64,000 nt of DNA from contig NZ_FXUE01000005.1 in the NCBI RefSeq assembly GCF_900182935.1, positions 211,782-275,781 of the forward strand, in the 5' to 3' direction. The stretch is from Fibrobacter sp. UWB10 (GTDB lineage: Bacteria; Fibrobacterota; Fibrobacteria; Fibrobacterales; Fibrobacteraceae). Of this stretch, positions 44,555 to 55,357 are shown one piece after another. Position 1 is the first letter of the stretch; every line of letters starts with the position of its first letter. The notes beneath the pieces are model-generated. The model was not told where the DNA came from. It made no database searches and worked only from the letters and a program-made list of their open reading frames with translations. A program made the position numbers and the translations under genes.

Positions 44555-46954
44555 TTATTTGGTGCGATCAATGACTTTCGGACGACCGCTCTGCAGTTTC
44601 ATCAGCAAGTCGGCAACCTCGTTCCAATGATCCAACACCACCTTACCAATGGCCGGATCGTACATCACGCCCAAGTTCTTCTCGATTTCCTGGCGACAGT
44701 AATCCAGCGACAAGGCATCGCGGTAAACACGTTTACTCGTCATTGCATCAACAGAGTCTGCGATAGCGATGATACGGGCTCCAATAGGAATATCTTCACC
44801 CTTCAAGCCTTCCGGATAACCGCGACCATCGTAACGTTCATGGTGATGCAACACAATCTGCACCAATTCATGGGTGTAGTTGGACTGCATCAAAATCTTG
44901 GCACCAATCACCGGATGCTGCTTAATAATCGAGAATTCATCATCCGTAAGCTTACCGGGCTTGCCGAGCACGTTATCGCTAATGCCCATCTTACCAATAT
45001 CATGCAAATGTGCAGCATGGGTAATCAGCGAAACAGAACCTTCCGAAAGGCCCAGCAACCTAGCAATCTGTTCTGAGAAAGCCTTCACACGATCGGAGTG
45101 ATGCGCCGTATAAGAATCCTTTGCTTCTTCCACCGTAATCAAGCAAGAAATCAAGTCCTTCAGGTTCTGGTTTTCGTTGTTTTCCACCGGCTTGTGGTAA
45201 CGCACCTTGTCGCGGTACATATTCAAGTCAGCTTCCATTTTCCAGTCACTAATAGACTTGCGAATGCCCGAATCACTGCGCAAACGGCTTTCGCCCACCG
45301 CAATAGACAAGTGATACAAAGCGCCCTTGTTGTATTCTTCAATGCACTTTTTCAAGTTGCTATACAGCACAAACAGAGAATCCAGCGGAGCATGTGTCAC
45401 CACGGCAAATTCGTCACCACCGATTCTAAAGCAGTTTCCGGCCGCGCCGTAAGCATTCTTAATCGCTTCGCCCGCAGCCACAATCAAGGCATCACCCGCC
45501 TGGTGACCGAAGGTGTCGTTTGCGTACTTCAAGCCGTTCACATCCATCAGCACCATAGTCCAAGTGCCCGAAGCATCGGCGTCCTCTTGGCTAATCTTCC
45601 TCAGGATTTCATCAAAAGCAAGCCTGTTTTCAAGCCCCGTCAACGAATCCGTTGTCGCGACATCTTGCAGGTGTTCGTTCATCACACGAAGCTTGCTGTT
45701 AATCTGCTCCAATTCGAACGAAGTTTCGCGAATGAACGTTGCCATACGGGCCGCAAGCGGAAGCCTCGTCGACATACCTTCTTGAATATCTTCAACCTTG
45801 ACATGTTCTTGCTTTACCGCAGGACCTTCACGCATCGAGGCAAATACAAGCGTAATGTTGTGCTGGTTCAAATGACCCTTTTCACGCAAGAATTCACCAT
45901 GCGAGAAAAATCCGGTACTAGAAGCCAAGCCCTTGAACGGAGAAATTTCGTAAGTCGGTTCACGCTGCGACCAGAAAGCCTTTCGAGCCGCACAAGAGAA
46001 AATATGCTGAACTTCAGGCGCAAACTTTACGCACTTTTCGCTTTCTTCCTTAATGCGTTGCACAATCAGCTGCGGTTCACCATACGACAAGCGCACAATA
46101 GAGCCTTCGTCAATATCAGACGACATCGTTAGCGAACCATCCGGGTTACTAGCACCCGCCGCACGCACAATCGAAACCCCGTTATGTTCATAAAGCATCG
46201 GGAATTCAAGCGCGTTATAGAAGAAGTTCTTGTCATTCTTAATATTCAAGTACTTATTGTAGACTTCGTATGCCGGAACACCACCCAATTCATAAAGAAT
46301 GTTGCCCTCGGAACGCGTCACGTGGAAATTACGGCCAATCGGTTTCCAGCCGCTAATCTTACGGGAATCCACATGCAAGTCCGCACCACCATAAAAAACA
46401 ACCAACAGGCCCGATTTAGAGAACCCACCCACCGACGAAAACACGCAGGAATTCGGGCTCGTAATATCAGGCGAACAGACAATACCACCGAAAACCTGGA
46501 TATCAGGAGCTAAAGCGTCAAGCCCCTCGCAAAGAGCCGTAGTCGAGAACGGTGAAATGCAGTGGTAAATTTCGACCGCCTTCACCCACGGATTGCGGTC
46601 CGCCTCTTTTACGATTTCATTCGCAATGCCGCCAACCGATTCCTTAGAAAAGTCATACTGGAAAACCCGGAACTTGCTCGCCGGCTTTTCGAAAATAATT
46701 GCAGACACCGAAATATCGACCGTCTGTTCGCAATCAACAATATTTCCGCTAGTGGAATTGCCAAACCAAGGGACATCGGGGAACACCCGTTCAATAACAT
46801 CCCAGATCAGCTTCAGCTTTTCGGGATCCAATATGGCCGTGTGGATTTGGAAGCACATGAGAGGATTCCCATGTTCCTTGTACCACTTGCTAAACAGGAA
46901 AAGTTCATTTTCGAACTCCACCGCATTTTTATAGGCGAAAATTTTGTTCTTCAT
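44555..46954 (-). CDS. FIST sensor - GGDEF - HD-GYP signalling protein
   Basis: The protein has 799 residues from ATG 46954, with GGGAAAAT upstream; the longer frame from 46975 is not needed. Residues ~20-370 form FIST_N and FIST_C sensor domains (PWFGNSTSGNI, FGGIVCSPD, PIGRNFHVTRSEGNILYELGG). A GGDEF cyclase domain (~430-590) has LTGLENRLAFDEIL and the intact IGGDEFAVV. An HD-GYP phosphodiesterase (~605-790) has the metal-binding HDIGKMG and HHERYDGRGYPEGLKGEDIP. All catalytic motifs look intact, so it may both make and degrade cyclic di-GMP. FIST domains are thought to sense small ligands such as amino acids. No TM helix is present, so it is cytosolic. Confidence 0.92.
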   Translation of the reverse strand: MKNKIFAYKNAVEFENELFLFSKWYKEHGNPLMCFQIHTAILDPEKLKLIWDVIERVFPDVPWFGNSTSGNIVDCEQTVDISVSAIIFEKPASKFRVFQYDFSKESVGGIANEIVKEADRNPWVKAVEIYHCISPFSTTALCEGLDALAPDIQVFGGIVCSPDITSPNSCVFSSVGGFSKSGLLVVFYGGADLHVDSRKISGWKPIGRNFHVTRSEGNILYELGGVPAYEVYNKYLNIKNDKNFFYNALEFPMLYEHNGVSIVRAAGASNPDGSLTMSSDIDEGSIVRLSYGEPQLIVQRIKEESEKCVKFAPEVQHIFSCAARKAFWSQREPTYEISPFKGLASSTGFFSHGEFLREKGHLNQHNITLVFASMREGPAVKQEHVKVEDIQEGMSTRLPLAARMATFIRETSFELEQINSKLRVMNEHLQDVATTDSLTGLENRLAFDEILRKISQEDADASGTWTMVLMDVNGLKYANDTFGHQAGDALIVAAGEAIKNAYGAAGNCFRIGGDEFAVVTHAPLDSLFVLYSNLKKCIEEYNKGALYHLSIAVGESRLRSDSGIRKSISDWKMEADLNMYRDKVRYHKPVENNENQNLKDLISCLITVEEAKDSYTAHHSDRVKAFSEQIARLLGLSEGSVSLITHAAHLHDIGKMGISDNVLGKPGKLTDDEFSIIKQHPVIGAKILMQSNYTHELVQIVLHHHERYDGRGYPEGLKGEDIPIGARIIAIADSVDAMTSKRVYRDALSLDYCRQEIEKNLGVMYDPAIGKVVLDHWNEVADLLMKLQSGRPKVIDRTK

Positions 46955-47097
46955 ATTTTCCCTTCTTAAGGACAATAGATGACTTTAATATATATAAGAA
47001 AATAGGGGTGTTGCAACAGCTCCCCCTTCAAAAAGCCCCCAAAAATCGCCTATAAATTAGTCCAAATTGGAATAATTGGGGGTTAGAAATAGATAAA

Positions 47098-47121
47098 GGG
47101 AGCCTCGCGGCTCCCTATTTT
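47098..47121. terminator. Terminator at the end of the calpain-like gene 1
   Basis: GGGAGCC-TCGC-GGCTCCC, with CTTTATCT on the minus side and TATTTTTT on the plus side. It can act both ways; the gene at 47128 is the likely user. Confidence 0.7.
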
Positions 47122-47127
47122 TTGCAG

Positions 47128-48963
47128 CTATTCACGCAAACCACTAGATGAATATTTGAAATTGAGTGTTTTAGAGGCTCTATTATGATAGTAGAAGTAC
47201 CTAGAATAAGAATACCTACCGCCAACATAAACAACAACTCTCACTTTAGAGCGATCCTTGATATTTTTCGTTGACAAATCAATCGTAGCAGAACCGTTTC
47301 GCGCCAACGAGCCATACGTCCATGTAGATGTAGATCCCGTATCCGGATCCTGATATTGTACCCTTACAGACACAGAACTGCTATAATTGTTGGTTACTTT
47401 TACGTTATGAGTCGGTTCTTCTGACACCAAATTTGTAGATCCATAGCTCAACGACGGTCCGTCATAGTAGCAAATGTCATCAAAAAGACGTTTAAACTCG
47501 TTAATTTCCAACAGGAAAACGCCATTAGATTTATACGGATCATCATTACCACTAACACCCCTATAAATATCGTATCGGCCACGATAGGTATCCATGATAT
47601 TATACCCGAAATTATACCCCCAACATCCATGATAAACTTTAGGATTGTTTTTGAGAGTCAGAGGATTATATCCATGCGGGTTACGAAGAACGACATACTT
47701 TGTATTGCCCGAACTATAGACATCCAAAAGCGAATAGGCATGCCAAATATAGAGTCCCAAATTCAAGTAATCCTGTTCCGTGCCGGCTTTGCCATAGTTA
47801 ACTGAAACTCCATTTTCAATTCGTACCCTACGGTAAATCATGGCACACGCAGGACAATTACGACCAGACATTGCCCTACTCCAAATATCGCTTTCCGTCA
47901 TCGCAGAAAGGCTTTTGGTGGTAACATTTTCTGTATGCAGAAGTTCCTTCAAAGCCGCATCTGCGTTACCACCATGAATAATACCTACAGATGTTCCATT
48001 TCTTGCAGCATCATTCGACGACAACATATTCGGATAATCGGAAGTACACTTTTCCAAGAACTTTGCATAAGCCTTTTCATAAACAGCAGGCCAACAAGAA
48101 TCCATATCAGCCTTAGATGTCGGAAGCGTCCCTCCATTAATGCGATAATTCTTTTCCTTAGGGCCACAAACGCCATAATTCAAGCCATTGTTATATACAA
48201 GCACCTCTTCTGAGGCAACGATTGTCTGTACCGTTTTCTTTTTGTCACTCCAAGCTACCGACGATTCATAGTACGTGCTATCGGGGACATAGAAATCAAT
48301 AGCATGCCAAGGAGCATACTTCTCAGTACCGCCAGCTCCATTATTCCACTTACCTCTAAGTGCAGTCACATTTTTTATCAAGAACGGATTAACATAGACT
48401 ATAGAACATAGTGCCGAAAGAAAATAGCAGTCTCCGATACCATTTTGGCAGATATCACGCCAATCAACAATTTCATTAAAGAAATATCCTTTGTCTTGCC
48501 ATTTCATTCCTGTTGGCATATACACATCATCATTGCTTCCAACACCGGAAACTTCACCATTATCAATCATTTGATTTTTGACTTTATCAGACACCTGCTT
48601 ATGCAGCAACAGATTGATGATATTTTTACGTCGTTGCGCAGCCGACAATGTTTTAGTCGAGGTCGCCTTTTTGGACGTTTTAGCAGCCACTTGAGGTCTT
48701 GCATGCTTTTTCAGCAGCGCATCCAAATTTTTCTCAGCATCTTCTTCTGAAACAGCCTTGAGTTTGCCATTTGCATCAGCAGTCACTAGCGGATTCAAAA
48801 GAGATGTTGCATTTTGCATAAAGCCCTCTTTTGTAACGCCAAAGCATTCTGCTACAGCATCAAAGCCATCCTTTTGCTTTGACCAATTAATGCGTTCGCC
48901 CTTAATAAGTTCTGCAACACTAAACGGGTCAGGACAACCACCAATATAATTTTTATTAGCCAT
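47128..48963 (-). CDS. Calpain-family (C2) cysteine peptidase 1
   Basis: The protein has 611 residues. The N-terminal ~90 residues carry GCPDPFSVAELIKGERINWS and FGVTKEGFMQNATSLLNP, then a Lys/Thr linker. The calpain core (~150-505) has oxyanion Gln173 and Cys179 in CQNGIGDCYFLSAL, the Trp-containing DSCWPAVYEKAYAKF, His408 in YIWHAYSLLDV and Asn428 in VVLRNPHG, so all catalytic residues are present. A C-terminal beta-sandwich follows from ~515. There is no signal peptide and no calcium-binding EF hands. It is AT-rich. A paralogue lies directly upstream with its own similar promoter. Substrate unknown; a role with the radical SAM protein is inference. Confidence 0.88.
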   Translation of the reverse strand: MANKNYIGGCPDPFSVAELIKGERINWSKQKDGFDAVAECFGVTKEGFMQNATSLLNPLVTADANGKLKAVSEEDAEKNLDALLKKHARPQVAAKTSKKATSTKTLSAAQRRKNIINLLLHKQVSDKVKNQMIDNGEVSGVGSNDDVYMPTGMKWQDKGYFFNEIVDWRDICQNGIGDCYFLSALCSIVYVNPFLIKNVTALRGKWNNGAGGTEKYAPWHAIDFYVPDSTYYESSVAWSDKKKTVQTIVASEEVLVYNNGLNYGVCGPKEKNYRINGGTLPTSKADMDSCWPAVYEKAYAKFLEKCTSDYPNMLSSNDAARNGTSVGIIHGGNADAALKELLHTENVTTKSLSAMTESDIWSRAMSGRNCPACAMIYRRVRIENGVSVNYGKAGTEQDYLNLGLYIWHAYSLLDVYSSGNTKYVVLRNPHGYNPLTLKNNPKVYHGCWGYNFGYNIMDTYRGRYDIYRGVSGNDDPYKSNGVFLLEINEFKRLFDDICYYDGPSLSYGSTNLVSEEPTHNVKVTNNYSSSVSVRVQYQDPDTGSTSTWTYGSLARNGSATIDLSTKNIKDRSKVRVVVYVGGRYSYSRYFYYHNRASKTLNFKYSSSGLRE

Positions 48964-49017
48964 TTACGATTTTCCTTTTTAAGGTTTTGGGTTAGGAGTT
49001 AAATGTTGATTGCAAAC

Positions 49018-49055
49018 AACATTGCTAATATAATGTTTTTGTAATCAAAAAGTAA
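49018..49055 (-). promoter_or_regulatory. Promoter and palindrome upstream of calpain-like gene 1
   Basis: On the minus strand TTACTT (plus 49050-49055), a 17-nt spacer and TATATT (plus 49027-49032). The palindrome AACATT-N8-AATGTT (49018-49037) covers the -10 region. The same arrangement is found upstream of the second calpain gene. The rest of the 48964-49143 spacer is AT-rich and empty. Confidence 0.5.
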
Positions 49056-49143
49056 ATTATTTCAATAATTTTACTACTTTGTTTACAATGTATTATTTTG
49101 TACAACATTCAATATTCTTTGAAATGCAACAGAGTTCTATCTA

Positions 49144-49175
49144 TAAAAAAACTCCTCTCGTAAACACAAGAGGAG
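49144..49175 (-). terminator. Terminator after calpain-like gene 2
   Basis: CTCCTCT and AGAGGAG arms with a 10-nt loop; TTTTTTT follows on the minus strand. The two calpain genes therefore have separate transcripts. Confidence 0.8.
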
Positions 49176-49205
49176 CTTTAATCTACCAAAACAATCTTAA
49201 ATAGT

Positions 49206-51077
49206 CTACAGCTCTATTATTGAACCTGAAGTACATTCATAATGGATCGTTTTAGACGCACTTTTATGATAATAGAAATATCTAGAATAATACGTACGAC
49301 TCTGCAGTACATTCCCGCTTGACAAAACAACGACTCTTACTTTAGAACGATCCTTTATTTTCTTTTGCGACAAATCAATCGTAGTCTTTCCATTAGCCCT
49401 CAAAATCAAAGATGCAGGTAGAGAGACAATCTCGGCACTGCCTGGCTCAATACATTCCAATTTCACCGATACTCTCTTGGCAAAATCCATTAACATAATT
49501 TTATTGGTCAACTCAACAAATCGAACCGGCTCTTCCGACACCAAATTGGTATAGCCATAGGTCAAAGACGGTCCACTATAATACGAAACATCGTGGAACA
49601 ATCGCTTGAATTCTGCTATTTCCAACAAGAATACTCCATTAGAATTATATGGGTCATCATTACCTTCAACTTCCTTGTAAATATCCAACAATCCTCGATA
49701 AGAATCCATCACGTTGTAGCCAGTGCTATACTTCCAATTCCCATGATAGACTTTAGAGTTATTTTTAAGATTGCTATTATTTTTTCCATGTGGATTACGG
49801 AGAACTACATATTTTTTCCCATTACAAGCATACCCATTTAACACTGAATACACATGTGAAATGTGAAGTCCTCGCTCCAAGTAATATTCTTCGGTTCCAG
49901 CTTTGCCATAGCTTACTTTGGTACCATTTTCTTCCTTCGTTTCACCATGAATCGACGCACAAGACGGATTTTCGGAAGCGGACACCGCCCATTGCCAAAT
50001 TTGACTTTCCGACATAGAATCAAGTTTCTTTACAGTCACCTGCTCTGTGTGAAGAAGGATTTTTAAAGCATTACTTGCACTACCACCATGTATCAAAGCA
50101 CCCTCTTTTCCATTTTTCCTAGCATCTCCAACAGAGAGCATATTTGGACAATCTGATGTACTTTTCTCTAAAAATTTGGAAAAAGCCTTCTCATAAACAG
50201 CGGCCCAGCACGAATCCTTATCTGCTTTAGCCGTTGGAAGCGGATTACGATTCAACATGCAAGACTTTTCTTTTTGACCGCACACTCCATAATTAAGTCC
50301 ATCACTTTTAACAAGCACCTCTTCTGAAGTTACAACTGTTTGCACGGTTTTCTTTTTATCATTCCATGCTAAAGAAGCTTCACTTGTTCCATCAGGAACA
50401 TAGAAATCAATCGCATGCCACGGAGATTCACGTTCAACACATCCAGCACCTTCATTCCATTTTCCACGAAAAGCTGTCACATTTTTTATCAAGAAAGGAT
50501 TAACATAGGCAACAGAACAAAGCGCCGCAAGAAAATAGCAGTCTCCAATACCATTTTGGCAAACATCTCGCCAATCAACAATTTCATTAAAGAAGTAGCC
50601 CTTGTCTTGCCATTTCATGCCAGAAGGCAGGAACACCTCATCATTACTACCAACCTTTTCTTCAAAAATTTCAACATTCTGTTTCAGTTTTGACACATCA
50701 ATTTCTTTTTTTAGCAACGAATCAACAATCTTTTCACGTTTCTGATCAATGATCAATACATTTTTTGCGTTATTTTTTCTTGAAATATTTTTTGTAGACT
50801 TCAGCGGTCTTGCATTTTTTTTCAAAATTTCATCAAGTTTTTGTCGAGCATTCTCTTCTGAAAGAACCAACTTTTTACCTTTTGCATCTACAGTAACCTG
50901 AGGATTCAAAAGCGCCGTTGCATTTCGCATAAAGCCCTGTTTAGTAACTCCAAAACACTTTGCAACTGTATCAAGGTCATCTTTTTCCTTTGACCAATTA
51001 ATACTTTTTCCACTGACGAATTCCGCAACACTAAACGGATCTGGGCAACCACAAACGAAGTCATTATTATTTGCCAT
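49206..51077 (-). CDS. Calpain-family (C2) cysteine peptidase 2, paralogue of peptidase 1
   Basis: The protein has 623 residues with the same layout as the gene at 47128. The N-terminal block has GCPDPFSVAEFVSGKSINWS and FGVTKQGFMRNATALLNP. The core has Gln174 and Cys180 in CQNGIGDCYFLAAL, His408 in HISHVYSVLNG and Asn428 in VVLRNPHG. A C-terminal beta-sandwich follows, somewhat longer than in paralogue 1. The linker after residue 90 differs strongly, while the first 90 residues are well kept, so the N-terminal block matters for function (targeting, recognition or self-inhibition). No signal peptide is visible. Intact active sites suggest both copies work. Confidence 0.88.
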   Translation of the reverse strand: MANNNDFVCGCPDPFSVAEFVSGKSINWSKEKDDLDTVAKCFGVTKQGFMRNATALLNPQVTVDAKGKKLVLSEENARQKLDEILKKNARPLKSTKNISRKNNAKNVLIIDQKREKIVDSLLKKEIDVSKLKQNVEIFEEKVGSNDEVFLPSGMKWQDKGYFFNEIVDWRDVCQNGIGDCYFLAALCSVAYVNPFLIKNVTAFRGKWNEGAGCVERESPWHAIDFYVPDGTSEASLAWNDKKKTVQTVVTSEEVLVKSDGLNYGVCGQKEKSCMLNRNPLPTAKADKDSCWAAVYEKAFSKFLEKSTSDCPNMLSVGDARKNGKEGALIHGGSASNALKILLHTEQVTVKKLDSMSESQIWQWAVSASENPSCASIHGETKEENGTKVSYGKAGTEEYYLERGLHISHVYSVLNGYACNGKKYVVLRNPHGKNNSNLKNNSKVYHGNWKYSTGYNVMDSYRGLLDIYKEVEGNDDPYNSNGVFLLEIAEFKRLFHDVSYYSGPSLTYGYTNLVSEEPVRFVELTNKIMLMDFAKRVSVKLECIEPGSAEIVSLPASLILRANGKTTIDLSQKKIKDRSKVRVVVLSSGNVLQSRTYYSRYFYYHKSASKTIHYECTSGSIIEL

Positions 51078-51146
51078 ATTATTTGTTTCCTTTATAATAA
51101 GTTGAGTGTTAAGGGCAAGAGATTTACGTTGTTATAGATTTCAAAC

Positions 51147-51184
51147 AACATTATCAATATAATGTTATCATAACAATAAAGTAC
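51147..51184 (-). promoter_or_regulatory. Promoter and palindrome upstream of calpain-like gene 2
   Basis: On the minus strand GTACTT (plus 51179-51184), a 17-nt spacer and TATATT (plus 51156-51161). The palindrome AACATT-N8-AATGTT lies at 51147-51166, placed relative to the -10 box exactly as in the paralogous promoter. Confidence 0.5.
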
Positions 51185-51273
51185 ATTTTTTATTTATTTT
51201 TACAACTTTATCCAAAATATATTACTTCATAAAACTATTTTATCTCATTTGTATTACATCCTCTACACAAAAG

Positions 51274-51309
51274 AAAGTCTAGTTTGCGTAGCAAACTAGA
51301 CTTTCGCTT
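51274..51309. terminator. Strong bidirectional terminator below the small Lys/Ala protein gene
   Basis: AAAGTCTAGTTTGC-GTA-GCAAACTAGACTTT is a perfect 14-bp stem. CGCTTTTT follows on plus and CTTTTGTG on minus. It separates the radical SAM operon from the calpain genes. Confidence 0.8.
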
Positions 51310-51327
51310 TTTCACAACAAGGAAAAA

Positions 51328-51627
51328 TTACTTTTTCTTGGCCACAGCTTTGGCCTTCACAGCAGAGGTTGCAACCTTAGTATCAGCAGCCTTTGCAAGA
51401 GTTACAGCCTTTTCCACCTGCTTAAAGTCTGCAGCTCTAAACAGATCGCGGTCCATAATGTAACCCACAAGAGAACCACCACGTCTTACAGGTCTGAGAT
51501 GTTCAAAGGCCCATCTTTCAACGATAATGCCTTTTGTTCCATCATAAGCAAGAACCTTATTGCTTTTGGTGGCAGCTTTAGCGGTAGACTTTGCAGCAAC
51601 TGCTTTGGTTTCGATTTTTGTAGCCAT
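51328..51627 (-). CDS. Small protein with Lys/Ala-rich tails next to a radical SAM maturase
   Basis: The protein has 99 residues from ATG 51627, with AAAGGAT upstream; the longer frame to 51903 overlaps the maturase gene and is rejected. Both ends are low-complexity Lys/Ala/Thr (MATKIETKAVAAKSTAKAATK; SAVKAKAVAKKK), like histone-H1-type tails. The centre has KGIIVERWAFEHLRPVRRGG and VGYIMDRDLFRAADF. It contains no Cys. It starts 28 nt after the radical SAM stop and ends at a strong terminator, so the two form an operon. It is the natural candidate for the maturase substrate, but a nucleic-acid-binding role is equally possible. No family is recognised. Confidence 0.6.
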   Translation of the reverse strand: MATKIETKAVAAKSTAKAATKSNKVLAYDGTKGIIVERWAFEHLRPVRRGGSLVGYIMDRDLFRAADFKQVEKAVTLAKAADTKVATSAVKAKAVAKKK

Positions 51628-51655
51628 TGTTTTATCCTTTTTTAGGGTTAGTGAG

Positions 51656-52768
51656 TTAAAAAAATTCGCCTTGAGCCCGACGCTTTTCGAGGACTTCATC
51701 ACAAATAGCAACCAGTATTCGCTCATGAGTGCACACTTCAGGGGACACCCCATAAATCGAGCCGGTCGTGTAAAAAGACGTACAACTGCATTCATGCGCA
51801 GAACAGCGATATTTAATCGCACAACCTTTACATTCCGGTTTATCAGATTCATAAAAATGACATAAATCTTTTGCCACCGGACCAGAAAACATTTCAAGAC
51901 CATCGCTCAAAACATTTCCCAAAACATACTTTGCACCAGGAGCACTCGTTACAAAACGACTGCATGGGAAAACATTTCCATTCGCAGCAACACCAAAACC
52001 ACCTTTAGAAACAGAACACGATTGATCCTTCAATCTGGTATTCAAAACGGCATAGGTAATTTTATCTTGTATCGTCCCTAAATAAAGATCCTTTCCCGCA
52101 TTTCTGAAATCAAACCAAAGCATGGCCATTTTTTGATATTCCAAAGCAAGCGCATCTAAATCTTCACCAGTCCACTTACCATCATAATTCAAAGCCGTAG
52201 ACATCCCACGAAAGCCTTGTCCAAACACCCATTTAACAGAGTCAGCCAAGCCTCGCACATGTTCGCGAGTCACCACCGACAACACGGTCGCATCCATATT
52301 AACCAATCTCGGAATAAACGGAGCAATATCTTTAAAGCAGCCTGACCCATCAATTTTCACTCTAGCAATATCGTGTTTATTCTCAGGCCCATCTAAAGAC
52401 AGATATATTTGAACTTTTTCCTTTTCAAAATAGTCCAAAATTTCATCGCTAAAGAGGGTTCCATTCGTATTCACGGCAAACCGCAATTCAAAGCGTTCAG
52501 GAAGCTCCGAGCGTCTAAATTCAACCAACGATCTAGCAAGATTCACACCCTTTTGAATAGCATCCATTCGTAAAAGAGGTTCGCCACCAAAAAAAGTGAT
52601 ATTGAAAAATTCGTGCTTTAATTTAATCACTCTTTCCAAGCCAAGTTTTATCGCCTTTCCAAGAATTTCATCATTCATTTCAAGCTTGCGATCAACTTGG
52701 CTCGTTTTATAATAACAATACTTACAGCGTAAATTGCACTTTTCTGTTAAACTTAATAGCAAATTCAT
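51656..52768 (-). CDS. Radical SAM/SPASM peptide- or protein-maturase
   Basis: The protein has 370 residues. The [4Fe-4S]-SAM motif is CNLRCKYC (Cys11, 15, 18), followed by FFGGEPLLR, VNTNGTL and YLSLDGP, the order seen in peptide-modifying and anSME-type enzymes. The C-terminal SPASM region carries a Cys set: QSCSVSKGG, VFPCSRF, then ECKGC, YRCSAHECSC and VCTHER, enough for two auxiliary clusters. Known relatives modify ribosomal peptides or sulfatases; no sulfatase is nearby. It may belong to one of the radical SAM maturase families first defined in Fibrobacter and Ruminococcus, which needs a profile search. Promoter box TATATTTG lies at plus 52805-52812. Confidence 0.85.
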   Translation of the reverse strand: MNLLLSLTEKCNLRCKYCYYKTSQVDRKLEMNDEILGKAIKLGLERVIKLKHEFFNITFFGGEPLLRMDAIQKGVNLARSLVEFRRSELPERFELRFAVNTNGTLFSDEILDYFEKEKVQIYLSLDGPENKHDIARVKIDGSGCFKDIAPFIPRLVNMDATVLSVVTREHVRGLADSVKWVFGQGFRGMSTALNYDGKWTGEDLDALALEYQKMAMLWFDFRNAGKDLYLGTIQDKITYAVLNTRLKDQSCSVSKGGFGVAANGNVFPCSRFVTSAPGAKYVLGNVLSDGLEMFSGPVAKDLCHFYESDKPECKGCAIKYRCSAHECSCTSFYTTGSIYGVSPEVCTHERILVAICDEVLEKRRAQGEFF

Positions 52769-52804
52769 AATCTATTTCCATCAACAATATATAATAAATC
52801 AAAC

Positions 52805-52812
52805 AAATATAG
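52805..52812 (-). promoter_or_regulatory. TAnnTTTG box upstream of radical SAM gene
   Basis: On the minus strand TATATTTG lies 36 nt before the ATG, giving a ~30-nt leader with GGAAA. The remaining divergent spacer to 52990 is very AT-rich with no gene seen. Confidence 0.5.
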
Positions 52813-53047
52813 ACAAAATATTTACAGAAATTTCTAACAAAGTATAGATTTTACAAATAAGCAAAACAACGACTACACAACACATTACATTGCATTACAA
52901 ACGAAACAATGTTAATTCCTACACAAAAATTTTACATTCCAAATAATACATTTTATATAATTTTACACAACAAACTACAAACAAAATAACAAAAGGAGTA
53001 TTATATTAAAGAAGCCTAACGCCGTAAAAAATCTAAAATGCGTCGCA

Positions 53048-53614
53048 ATGGATCTCGTAAAAGGATTTGTTGTTACATGGGATTGTTCCAACGGAGCCAC
53101 TTCATATATAATCGAACGAAAAAGAGTAACCACTGGAATAGACAAAACAGAACAGACCTTCAACATTTCAGCTGACGAATATCAAAAAGGGAACAAAATT
53201 ATATTCAACGATACAAGCACTAAAATTTCAGCAACCAGCGAGTATAGGTATGTCATCACGGCTATGAACTCTCGTGGAAGCAGCGGTTCAAGAACAACAA
53301 AAGACACAAAACCAGGAACGTGCCCACAAGGTTCAATTACAAAGTTAGTAGCAGATGTTGCGAAAACAGCCGAAATCAATTTGTCATGGGAAGCCGTTTC
53401 AAGAGCCAACCAATATTATGTATACTATCAGAAAACATCATCCAAAACAACGCTCATTACAAAAGTCGCATCAACTTCTGTAATCCTGAAAAGAGCCTCT
53501 ATTGAAGGCGGCTTCGTATACGTCGAACCTGCAAACGGTTGGGGAGAATCTAAAGGTGCAATCCGTCTGTGGCTAGCCATTGACGGGAAAAAAGTATCCG
53601 CATTCACGAAATAA
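53048..53614 (+). CDS. Two-domain fibronectin type III-like protein; true start probably upstream
   Basis: The protein has 188 residues from the first ATG. Two FN3-like domains are visible: FVVTWDCSNGATSYIIERKR with YRYVITAMNSRGSS (residues ~1-85), and EINLSWEAVSRANQYYVYYQK with GGFVYVEPANGWGES (~90-180). There is no signal peptide. The ATG at 53048 cuts into the first FN3 strand. The frame is open upstream to 53003 and adds LKKPNAVKNLKCVA, which looks like a proper FN3 start. A strong AAAAGGAG lies at 52991-52998, but at the right distance there is only ATA or TTA, not a normal start codon. It is divergent from the radical SAM gene. Confidence 0.6.
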   Translation: MDLVKGFVVTWDCSNGATSYIIERKRVTTGIDKTEQTFNISADEYQKGNKIIFNDTSTKISATSEYRYVITAMNSRGSSGSRTTKDTKPGTCPQGSITKLVADVAKTAEINLSWEAVSRANQYYVYYQKTSSKTTLITKVASTSVILKRASIEGGFVYVEPANGWGESKGAIRLWLAIDGKKVSAFTK

Positions 53615-53712: not shown

Positions 53713-53913
53713 CTAGCCAACATCCTTTGCTTGAACCACTTTTCCCAGCGGTTCAAAAGAATGCCCTTTGACATCAAAAGGCAGACGATCTTCACGAATC
53801 GTCATCTTCACGAACATGTTTACTGCCGCAGAAACAGTGATTCCCACGGAATCACAGAAGGTTTCGAACTTCTTTTTTGTTTCGTCTTCCATTCTTACAC
53901 TTACTATTGCCAT
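53713..53913 (-). CDS. RelB/DinJ-family antitoxin without adjacent toxin
   Basis: The protein has 66 residues. The ribbon-helix-helix N-terminus is typical of the family: MAIVSVRMEDETKKKFETFC and GITVSAAVNMFVKMTIREDRLPF, ending with a short toxin-binding tail. Family members bind RelE/YafQ mRNA-cleaving toxins and repress their own operon. Here the gene is followed after 30 nt by a terminator and the convergent FN3 gene. No RelE-like frame is present on either side, so it is an orphan, either a relic or a partner for a toxin elsewhere. GTAGGAAC precedes the ATG. Confidence 0.88.
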   Translation of the reverse strand: MAIVSVRMEDETKKKFETFCDSVGITVSAAVNMFVKMTIREDRLPFDVKGHSFEPLGKVVQAKDVG

Positions 53914-54154: not shown

Positions 54155-55252
54155 TTACCTTCCGACAAATTGGTCACCAAACTTCAATTCGGTCTCTTTA
54201 GCTCCATTCAGGTTCACCAAACGGTCCGGCGAGAACAACATATCGCGGGCAACACCCTCTTTGAGCGACTGCAATCGGCTAAAGAATTCATCGGCATTCT
54301 GTGCGGTAAGCAGGGTTTGGCGCACGTGCATTTCAGGATCATCAAATCCCTTACAAAGCCTTGCCGCAAGCTGTTTAAGGCGGCCTAGCGCCCCCATTTC
54401 GGTAGAGCCATCTTCTAGCTTAAACTTGTAGTAAAGCGGGAAAACATCCAGCGCTTCGATAGCAGTCATCTGCCGTTCCGGCTTACCTTCCCAGGCGTCG
54501 GCAATTTGTCCGAAAATCCACGGATTGTGCATGGCGCCGCGGCCAATAGACACGCCCGACACGCCATAGGTTTCAAGTCTTTCACGGGCGGTCGCGACGC
54601 TGTTCACGTCGCCATTCCCGATGACGGGAATCTTGGCCGCGGCCGCGACCTTGCCAATCCATTCCCAGTTGGCAAGGCCGTTGTACCCCTGCAGGCGGGT
54701 ACGGCCATGCACCGTGAGCATTTCCACGCCTTCGCCCTCGGCGATCGCAAGCGTTTCCATCACGTTAATGCTCTGGTCATCCCAGCCGATTCGGCACTTG
54801 AGCGTCAGCGGGATATCGACACTCGAAGAATCTAGCGCAGCACGGACATCGTGCAAAATCTCTTGCAGGCGCGGCAGGTCACGCAAAAGGCCAGAACCGC
54901 TCCCCTTTCCCGCCACCTTCGGTGCCGGGCAACCCGCATTCACCTCGATAAACTCCGGGTGAAGGTTTTCAGCAATCTTTTTAGCGGCAGCGGCCATTCT
55001 GTCAGGGAACCGCCCGAAAATTTGGACTCCAAACGGGCGTTCTTCGGGGAAAAACTTAAGTTGCTTGTGGCCATCCAGGCAAAAAACGGCATCTCCGTCG
55101 GTCGGAACGAATTCCGACACCAAAAGACCCATGCGATTGCCCGAAAGAACGCGACAAAGTCTACGGAACGGAGCATCCGTCACCCCGTCCATGGGGCTAA
55201 GAATTGTGTTCGGAAAAACATCCAAATTCCTGAGCTTGAAACTTTTCAACAT
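54155..55252 (-). CDS. dusB: tRNA-dihydrouridine synthase, DusB type
   Basis: The protein has 365 residues from ATG 55252 (GTG 55261 also possible). Motifs are NTILSPMDGVTDAPFRRLCR, the active-site Cys in VNAGCPAPKVAGKGSGSGLLRD, LKCRIGWDD, TVHGRTRLQGYNGLANW, VIGNGDVNS and SIGRGAMHNPWIF. The GxGSxLLRD segment and VHGRTR point to the DusB branch, differing from the DusA at 548-1531. The family reduces U17 in tRNA in E. coli. The C-terminal helical domain is present. The ~240-nt spacer to relB is AT-rich without a gene. Confidence 0.92.
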   Translation of the reverse strand: MLKSFKLRNLDVFPNTILSPMDGVTDAPFRRLCRVLSGNRMGLLVSEFVPTDGDAVFCLDGHKQLKFFPEERPFGVQIFGRFPDRMAAAAKKIAENLHPEFIEVNAGCPAPKVAGKGSGSGLLRDLPRLQEILHDVRAALDSSSVDIPLTLKCRIGWDDQSINVMETLAIAEGEGVEMLTVHGRTRLQGYNGLANWEWIGKVAAAAKIPVIGNGDVNSVATARERLETYGVSGVSIGRGAMHNPWIFGQIADAWEGKPERQMTAIEALDVFPLYYKFKLEDGSTEMGALGRLKQLAARLCKGFDDPEMHVRQTLLTAQNADEFFSRLQSLKEGVARDMLFSPDRLVNLNGAKETELKFGDQFVGR

Positions 55253-55357
55253 TTTAACCACAATTATTCACAAATATTCCGCAACTAGAGCCCGAAAAAA
55301 TTATTTAATTTCAGCGGGACCGGTACGCTAACTCATTGATAAACCTATATTTAAGCC

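What the first reader, a model, noticed from the sequence alone, without database searches (positions are those of the whole stretch)
47128..53614. Radical SAM/SPASM maturase locus with a small Lys/Ala protein, twin calpain peptidases and an FN3 protein
Within an AT-rich 6.5-kb island a SPASM maturase (51656-52768) is followed 28 nt later by a 99-residue protein. After that come two complete calpain-family cysteine peptidases sharing a conserved N-terminal block (GCPDPFSVAE...) and a divergent two-domain FN3 protein. Known peptide-maturation systems pair a radical SAM enzyme with a substrate and a protease; calpain-family enzymes are not, as far as I know, standard partners. Either the 99-residue protein or the conserved N-terminal block of the peptidases could be what the maturase modifies. 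The functional linkage is inferred from proximity, composition and shared promoter design.
Basis: partly seen in the sequence, partly recalled or inferred. Interest (0 to 1): 0.78.

Follow-up and report, generated by a model that had tools for sequence, protein, structure and literature searches.

The report
Radical-SAM maturase with cysteine-free partner
In Fibrobacter bacteria, this radical-SAM enzyme gene and its closest kin each sit just before a gene for a small, lysine-rich, mostly cysteine-free protein that the enzyme likely modifies, whereas the two protease genes beside it are probably unrelated passengers at an insertion hot spot.

Summary
The genes described are present. The maturase (51656-52768) and the 99-residue gene (51328-51627) look like one unit, closed by a strong predicted terminator before the calpains. 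Of 10 relatives whose same chromosomal site was resolved, two carry maturase plus 99-residue gene without calpains or FN3, three carry a calpain-like gene without maturase, and three are empty or nearly empty.

The maturase-small protein pair is general. Of 113 full-length family members examined in the order, 34 form one clade (class A), each followed within about 40 nt by a small basic protein. The other 79 (class B) are preceded by a Ser-rich, mostly lipoprotein-like protein, usually overlapping by 4 or 1 nt. Class A partners are hypervariable; 23 of 34 lack cysteine and 3 lack aromatics and His, so neither a thioether nor an aromatic cross-link can be their shared product. Outside Fibrobacter, 21 of the 32 nearest relatives adjoin an ORF with Tyr-Pro near its N-terminus. 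No NCBIfam cut-off among the rows shown was reached by the 11 enzymes scanned from this group. Best reading: an unnamed branch of PapB-like SPASM maturases acting on cysteine-free proteins; modification itself is inferred.

The parts
51656..52768 (-). Radical SAM/SPASM maturase (370 aa), class A; cluster cysteines C11/C15/C18 and C251/C269/C313/C316/C322/C327/C329/C346
   Evidence: C15, C18 and the eight SPASM-region cysteines are kept in 113 of 113 family members and C11 in 112 of 113; residue 3 aligns with residue 99 of CteB chain 5wgg_A, so no room for an N-terminal RRE domain (inference)
51328..51627 (-). 99-aa basic, cysteine-free partner protein, likely substrate
   Evidence: starts 28 nt after the maturase stop; dN/dS 0.14; 6 entries in the protein database at 74-99% identity
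51496..51543 (-). conserved core of the partner, residues 29-44 DGTKGIIVERWAFEHL, candidate modification region
   Evidence: residues 31-44 invariant in 8 of 8 aligned sequences; holds the G-I-I match of the motif enriched in class A partners
51273..51305 (-). predicted intrinsic terminator that would end the maturase-partner unit
   Evidence: 15-bp stem then TTTTGTG; -21.9 kcal/mol, z -5.5
49206..51077 (-). calpain-like peptidase A: independent cargo of the same hot spot, not part of the pair
   Evidence: own predicted hairpin
47128..48963 (-). calpain-like peptidase B: independent cargo, not part of the pair
   Evidence: predicted terminator at 47097-47116
53048..53614 (+). FN3-like ORF without a clear start: independent cargo, opposite strand
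   Evidence: no match at this site in the 10 resolved relatives
54155..55261 (-). dus-like gene, one border of the insertion hot spot (name from the sequence, recalled; not run against a family library)
   Evidence: matched in 75 of 80 genomes of the genus at E up to 1e-100; used as the border
44555..46975 (-). GGDEF/HD-GYP-type gene, other border of the hot spot (name from the sequence, recalled)

Best explanation
The maturase gene and the 99-residue gene lie 28 nt apart as what looks like one two-gene unit, in which the radical SAM/SPASM enzyme likely modifies the 99-residue protein, probably within its invariant Gly-Ile-Ile-Val region and by a chemistry that needs no cysteine. Shown: the gene order, a strong predicted terminator behind it, a small basic partner behind all 34 members of this enzyme clade, selection on both genes, and absence of calpains and FN3 from the same site in relatives that carry the pair. 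Inferred: that the partner is the substrate (by analogy with maturase-precursor pairs and from hypervariable partners beside a conserved enzyme), and that the motif Gly-[Ile/Val/Leu/Met]-[Pro/Ile/Val] marks the modified site. A [4Fe-4S] cluster would cleave SAM, and the 5'-deoxyadenosyl radical would take hydrogen from a side chain in or near that motif. Because 23 of 34 class A partners lack cysteine and 3 others lack Phe/Trp/Tyr/His, a product shared by all of them cannot be a Cys thioether or an aromatic cross-link; an epimerised or cross-linked aliphatic or acidic residue is the best remaining guess. The calpains and the FN3 gene are most likely separate cargo of the dus-GGDEF insertion hot spot.
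For: Family survey: 117 rows of matches in 64 of 113 genomes; 113 full-length copies examined, 4 fragmentary rows left out. 34 have a small ORF right after the enzyme gene (33 by rule, starting 11-40 nt downstream, and 1 with its start chosen by hand) and 79 have a Ser-rich protein ending at or near the enzyme start (47 overlap by 4 nt, 11 by 1 nt). Class A is defined by the partner, but the enzyme tree, which does not know it, separates A from B at one branch (support 99, 0 of 500 shuffles as low), and only 2 of 79 class B loci have any ORF of 69 aa or more starting 5-45 nt downstream. Class A enzymes share a median 56% identity, their partners 18%; 34 of 561 partner pairs are detectable by BLASTP. 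Motif G[IVLM][PIV]: 18 in 21 clusters (35 proteins, a second one at L017 included) against 7.5 in ordinary proteins of the window (11 of 5000 draws), and 14 of 21 clusters against 5.8 (0 of 5000). Hot spot. Terminators. Outside the genus, 21 of the 32 nearest relatives adjoin an ORF with Tyr-Pro in its first 40 residues; 22 of 43 adjacent ORFs against 44 of 490 other ORFs of the same loci.
Against: No modification has been seen; all functional steps are inferred. The motif is not universal (14 of 21 clusters) and was chosen after looking at the sequences. The de novo motif search beats sets of real protein segments only narrowly: five runs scored 144.9-158.5 against 131.1 +/- 6.6 in 60 control sets, of which 1 reached the lowest and none the highest run. 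The class A matrix transfers only weakly to class B (7 of 41 over the 95% level of shuffles; ordinary proteins 8.2%). The 3 partners without aromatics each have one Cys, so two different chemistries are not excluded. No protease or exporter was recognised in the two-gene unit, so this is not a complete peptide-natural-product cluster. The partner's fold is predicted with low confidence (mean pLDDT 48.5). The window's partner does not carry the Tyr-Pro element.
Confidence: 0.66

Rival explanations
1. The small basic protein is not modified; it is a separate recognition partner (a stand-in for the missing RRE domain) that brings another, unlinked substrate to the maturase.
For: The enzyme seems to have no N-terminal RRE; the partner is adjacent in all 34 members of the clade.
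Against: A recognition partner of a well-conserved enzyme should itself be conserved, but partners share a median 18% identity. Class B has a quite different kind of partner in the same role.
Confidence: 0.13
2. The small protein is a nucleoid- or RNA-binding basic protein, co-transcribed with the maturase by chance or for regulation.
For: Lys/Ala-rich tails, net charge +4 to +24, low-confidence fold.
Against: A partner behind all 34 members of the clade, beside several different flanking genes; the enzyme phylogeny predicts the partner type.
Confidence: 0.1
3. One reading: the calpains, or their GCPDPF block, are processing partners or substrates of this maturase.
For: Proximity only.
Against: Of 113 genomes only the window's has both the 99-aa gene and a calpain match; separate predicted terminators; the block persists in four genomes whose only family maturases are class B; in G058 and G096 the calpain lies near the end of a different gene cluster.
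Confidence: 0.04
4. A PapB-type ranthipeptide maturase making Cys-Asp/Glu thioethers.
For: Best NCBIfam match is PapB (182.9 bits); many class B partners of the MKIEKK type have a Cys near the C-terminus (by eye).
Against: Cut-off 340 not reached, while a Paenibacillus protein scores 431; the window's partner has no cysteine at all.
Confidence: 0.04

Closest known systems
PapB family ranthipeptide maturases (NCBIfam NF047865; PapA/PapB of Paenibacillus)
   Same: Stand-alone radical SAM + SPASM enzyme, aligned over residues 3-338; maturase acting on a ribosomal substrate.
   Different: Scores 182.9 against cut-off 340. PapA is cross-linked at CX3D motifs (PMC9413430, passages seen); the window's partner has no Cys. 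The Paenibacillus protein that passes the PapB cut-off branches elsewhere in the tree, although the deep branches are weakly supported.
CteB, SCIFF thioether maturase (PDB 5wgg; TIGR03974)
   Same: Nearest solved structure by sequence, 5.1e-31, residues 3-338 (the PDB calls it a radical SAM domain protein, the name CteB is recalled).
   Different: It has about 98 further N-terminal residues (its RRE, recalled); TIGR03974 cut-off 425 not reached (132.6 bits); no Cys in the partner.
Anaerobic sulfatase maturases (PDB 4k37; TIGR03942)
   Same: SPASM enzyme that acts on a protein rather than a short peptide (recalled); 2.1e-13.
   Different: 97.4 bits against cut-off 349; no sulfatase in the unit.
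FibroRumin radical SAM system (TIGR04136)
   Same: Radical SAM peptide maturase whose model name points to Fibrobacter and Ruminococcus (recalled).
   Different: 57.9 bits against cut-off 400: a different family.

Membership tests
Radical SAM/SPASM enzymes | CX3CX2C motif and a SPASM domain above Pfam cut-off | tested here: met
   PF04055 55.8 bits and PF13186 27 bits, both above cut-off; C15 and C18 in 113 of 113, C11 in 112 of 113
PapB ranthipeptide maturases (NF047865) | score at or above the curated cut-off of 340 bits | tested here: not met
   182.9; seven other Fibrobacterales copies 182-230; Paenibacillus L215 431
PapB ranthipeptide maturases (NF047865) | cysteine-containing precursor, CX3D/E | tested here: not met
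   the window's partner has no Cys; 23 of 34 class A partners have none, 11 have one
Sactipeptide or other thioether systems | cysteine in the core | tested here: not met
   the window's partner and 22 further class A partners have no Cys
Cyclophane-forming maturases | aromatic residue in every core | tested here: inconclusive
   3 of 34 class A partners have no F/W/Y/H, which argues against it for the class; the window's own partner has aromatics
RiPP-type maturase/precursor system | small hypervariable protein gene beside a conserved maturase gene | tested here: met
   34 of 34 members of the class A clade
RiPP-type maturase/precursor system | dedicated protease or exporter in the unit | tested here: not met
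   two-gene unit closed by a predicted terminator; the calpains are unlinked
RiPP-type maturase/precursor system | RRE recognition domain (present in many, not all, such systems) | tested here: not met
   alignment to 5wgg_A starts at residue 3 of the enzyme and residue 99 of the chain; no RRE model was run
RiPP-type maturase/precursor system | covalent modification of the partner | not testable with these tools
   needs mass spectrometry

The most novel reading that the evidence does not exclude
An unnamed, multi-phylum branch of radical SAM/SPASM enzymes modifies whole, largely cysteine-free proteins instead of short peptides: lysine-rich proteins and Ser-rich surface lipoproteins in Fibrobacter, and Tyr-Pro-led membrane-anchored proteins elsewhere. 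It would do so with a new cysteine- and aromatic-independent chemistry at short Gly-aliphatic-Pro/aliphatic motifs.
Probability: 0.33. Interest if true: 0.82.

Novelty: new variant of a known kind. Interest (0 to 1): 0.6.

Why it matters
If true, it adds a substrate class to a well-studied enzyme superfamily: proteins without the cysteine or aromatic residue that most known peptide-modifying SPASM chemistries use (general knowledge, recalled). It would also mean that Fibrobacter, a major rumen cellulose degrader, chemically modifies lipoproteins likely to face its surface. The two partner classes and the Tyr-Pro element give testable substrate sets in several phyla. It also shows how an insertion hot spot can mimic a functional gene cluster.

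Tried and rejected
Calpain or FN3 as partner: rejected by synteny and co-occurrence. Placement in a named maturase family: for the window enzyme none of the 25 NCBIfam rows shown (of 80) reaches its cut-off, nor does any row shown for ten other enzymes, seven from Fibrobacterales and one each from Saprospiraceae, Kiritimatiellae and Akkermansia. Naming the partner: no Pfam or NCBIfam match for the window's partner and no NCBIfam match for four other class A and three class B partners. Defence-system models: the calpains match none; the maturase matches only viperin models over the generic radical SAM core. Class A motif matrix carried over to class B: only weak transfer, so I do not claim one common motif for both classes. 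The shuffled-sequence control for the de novo motif was too generous; real protein segments (where the controls had fewer seeds than the real set, and with equal seeds) shrink the effect greatly. Partner fold: low confidence, so no fold search was run and the second structure job was not used. Literature: nine searches listed no title or abstract that describes these Fibrobacter pairs; the library holds open-licence papers only, and I read passages of three papers (PMC4289311, PMC5442110, PMC9413430) and otherwise only listings. PMC5442110 reports expression changes of six radical SAM genes in F. succinogenes S85; I did not map them to this family.

Limits of the counts: class B was assigned first (upstream ORF with at least three SS pairs); class A then needed a downstream ORF at 5-45 nt with at least 22% K+A+R, which is close to ordinary composition, so adjacency and the tree rather than composition carry the claim. 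One class A partner (L020) failed the rule because an upstream in-frame ATG was picked, and I re-chose its start by hand. The survey uses one genome per species and several are incomplete. The Tyr-Pro element was noticed before it was counted; in the tree I labelled 23 of the 27 loci as Tyr-Pro, leaving out four by eye, and used 9 of 34 class A, 10 of 79 class B and 61 of 64 other enzymes.
Full report
WHAT IS THERE. GC falls to 35-41%. The window lies in an assembly of 3.48 Mb. Its genus is Fibrobacter: same-genus contigs G040:C27 (63508 bases) and G083:C18 (55796 bases) agree in length and in the place of the match with records titled Fibrobacter sp. and Fibrobacter succinogenes.

TRANSCRIPTION UNITS. 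A 15-bp hairpin with a T-rich tail follows the 99-aa gene (51273-51305; -21.9 kcal/mol, z -5.5), another follows calpain A (folded from 49140-49185; -18.9, z -5.9), and a third follows calpain B (47097-47116; -16.6, z -4.1). Terminator-like sites exceed chance in the region (14 against 4.7 +/- 2.3), promoter-like sites do not (22 against 21.5). The maturase and the 99-aa gene therefore look like one unit and each calpain like its own; this is predicted, not measured.

THE SITE IS A HOT SPOT. I fetched the stretch downstream of the dus-like gene in 15 relatives and found the GGDEF border in 10 of them; in G021, G056, G085, G088 and G068 it was not found in the fetched stretch. Content between the borders: G035 and G078 empty (203 and 147 bases); G064 only the RelB-like gene (698); G059 and G061 RelB, maturase and 99-aa gene (about 2.4 kb), no calpain, no FN3; G023 RelB and a distant calpain-like gene (25% identity, opposite strand); G058 and G096 RelB and a calpain inside long unrelated inserts; G098 and G094 RelB and other genes. 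None of the 10 has both calpain and maturase here, and none has the FN3 ORF. In G058 and G096 the calpain lies near the end of another cluster (in G058: DUF4332, coiled coil, TPR, DUF6765 with a weak zinc-phospholipase-C match, calpain, DUF285). Across the order the 99-aa gene is in 3 of 113 genomes and a calpain match in 10 of 113, and only the window's genome has both.

THE PAIR IS GENERAL. The maturase matches 117 places in 64 of 113 genomes of the order. I took flanks for 113 full-length copies; one partial row in G095 and three in G097 were left out. Every one of the 113 has one of two partners. Class A (34, the window included): a small ORF of 69-183 codons right behind the enzyme gene (11-40 nt in the 33 found by rule), net charge +4 to +24. 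Class B (79): a Ser-rich protein, usually with a lipoprotein-like N-terminus (69 of 79 by a crude pattern), ending at or near the enzyme start, with a 4-nt overlap in 47 and a 1-nt overlap in 11. The window's own genome holds one of each. The classes are defined by the partner; the enzyme tree, built without it, puts all A on one side of a single branch (support 99; 0 of 500 shuffles as low). Only 2 of 79 class B loci have an ORF of 69 codons or more where class A has its partner. Class A pairs stand beside several different gene neighbourhoods. So the enzyme lineage predicts the partner type. This is the main reason to call the partner the substrate.

PARTNER AGAINST ENZYME. Class A enzymes share a median 56% identity; their partners 18%, with 34 of 561 partner pairs detectable by BLASTP. 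The window pair is under purifying selection (maturase dN 0.097, dS 1.11; partner 0.148, 1.03). In 8 aligned close homologues residues 31-44 (TKGIIVERWAFEHL) are invariant. For motif work I clustered 35 class A proteins (the 34 partners and a second one at L017) into 21 and the 79 class B proteins, without their first 45 residues, into 41. Gly-[IVLM]-[PIV] is enriched in class A (18 against 7.5 in ordinary proteins of the window, 11 of 5000 draws; 14 of 21 clusters against 5.8, 0 of 5000) and less so in class B (33 against 21.9, 135 of 5000; 23 of 41 clusters against 15.4, 55 of 5000). A de novo motif search scored 144.9-158.5 in five runs against 131.1 +/- 6.6 and a maximum of 151.1 in 60 sets of real protein segments with equal effort: above nearly all of them, but narrowly. 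Transfer of the class A matrix to class B is weak (7 of 41 over the shuffle 95% level and 4 of 41 over the 99% level; 8.2% and 2.2% for ordinary protein segments). The motif is a lead, not a result.

CHEMISTRY. The radical SAM cysteines C15 and C18 are kept in 113 of 113 copies and C11 in 112 of 113, and the eight SPASM-region cysteines in 113 of 113. The enzyme seems to lack an N-terminal RRE: residue 3 aligns with residue 99 of PDB chain 5wgg_A. Of 34 class A partners 23 have no cysteine, 11 have one, and 3 have no Phe, Trp, Tyr or His; those 3 are among the 11 with one Cys. A Cys thioether as in PapA (CX3D; PMC9413430, passages seen) or an aromatic cross-link therefore cannot be a product shared by all of class A, though two different chemistries are not excluded. 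Epimerisation, or a cross-link of aliphatic or acidic residues, is what I think most likely; this step is inference.

BEYOND FIBROBACTER. A capped scan of named genomes kept 80 loci of 434, 64 of them outside the genus-level group examined above, at 23-35% identity, from several phyla. Among the 32 nearest of these, 21 adjoin an ORF with Tyr-Pro in its first 40 residues (27 of all 64). Counted per ORF with the same handling of starts, that is 22 of 43 adjacent ORFs against 44 of 490 other ORFs in the same 32 loci. A frequent form is R-Y-x-x-P-x-Y-P. I noticed this motif before I counted it. Two deep class B proteins (L125, L126) carry Ala-Tyr-Pro near their N-termini. In a tree of 80 enzymes the Fibrobacter enzymes and the group that holds all 23 rows labelled Tyr-Pro fall on one side and the Paenibacillus protein that passes the PapB cut-off on the other, but the deep branches are weak and several rows are long. 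Seven partners from outside Fibrobacter (some cut at 230 residues) match no NCBIfam family apart from one chance-level hit; four such partners and L125 match no Pfam family.

VERDICT. The pair belongs to an unnamed branch near PapB and fails the tested PapB features, so I file it as a new variant of radical SAM maturase/substrate systems; that the partner is modified is likely but unshown.

Noticed in passing
G000:C3:190206-191285 (L002): Second member of the maturase family in the same genome, class B, with a Ser-rich lipoprotein-like gene overlapping its start by 4 nt.
   Followed up: yes
L162-L193 and others outside Fibrobacter: Proteins with an N-terminal Tyr-Pro element, often R-Y-x-x-P-x-Y-P, beside related maturases in several phyla; the seven outside partners scanned, most of them Tyr-Pro-led, are unnamed in NCBIfam.
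   Followed up: partly
window 53048-53614: The FN3-like ORF has no ATG/GTG/TTG start found before 53048; its frame stays open upstream past an AAAGGAG with ATT/ATA/TTA codons behind it. Either a rare start or a damaged gene.
   Followed up: partly
window 53713-53913: RelB-like antitoxin ORF, 73-100% identical at the same site in 8 of the 10 relatives whose site was resolved; I did not look for a toxin gene.
   Followed up: partly
L136 and L130 (G058, G096): In these genomes the calpain lies near the end of a long cluster with (in G058) DUF4332, two similar proteins that both begin near SIGQ, TPR, DUF6765 and DUF285: possibly the calpain's real system.
   Followed up: partly
L041, L046 (G080, G024): Tandem calpains whose last copy ends in a Pro/Ile/Lys-rich tail; one G024 match has two in-frame stops.
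   Followed up: no
L017, L028, L033: Some maturases have two tandem partners (two basic proteins downstream in L017, two lipoprotein-like genes upstream in L028 and L033).
   Followed up: no
L012, L015, L016: These class A pairs stand beside small peptide-like genes on the opposite strand, with a second radical SAM-like ORF in L012 and L015.
   Followed up: no
class B partners, MKIEKK type: Similar C-terminus (S-M-V-T/S-T-F/Y-E..D) preceded in many by a Cys; a possible second recognition or cross-link site.
   Followed up: no
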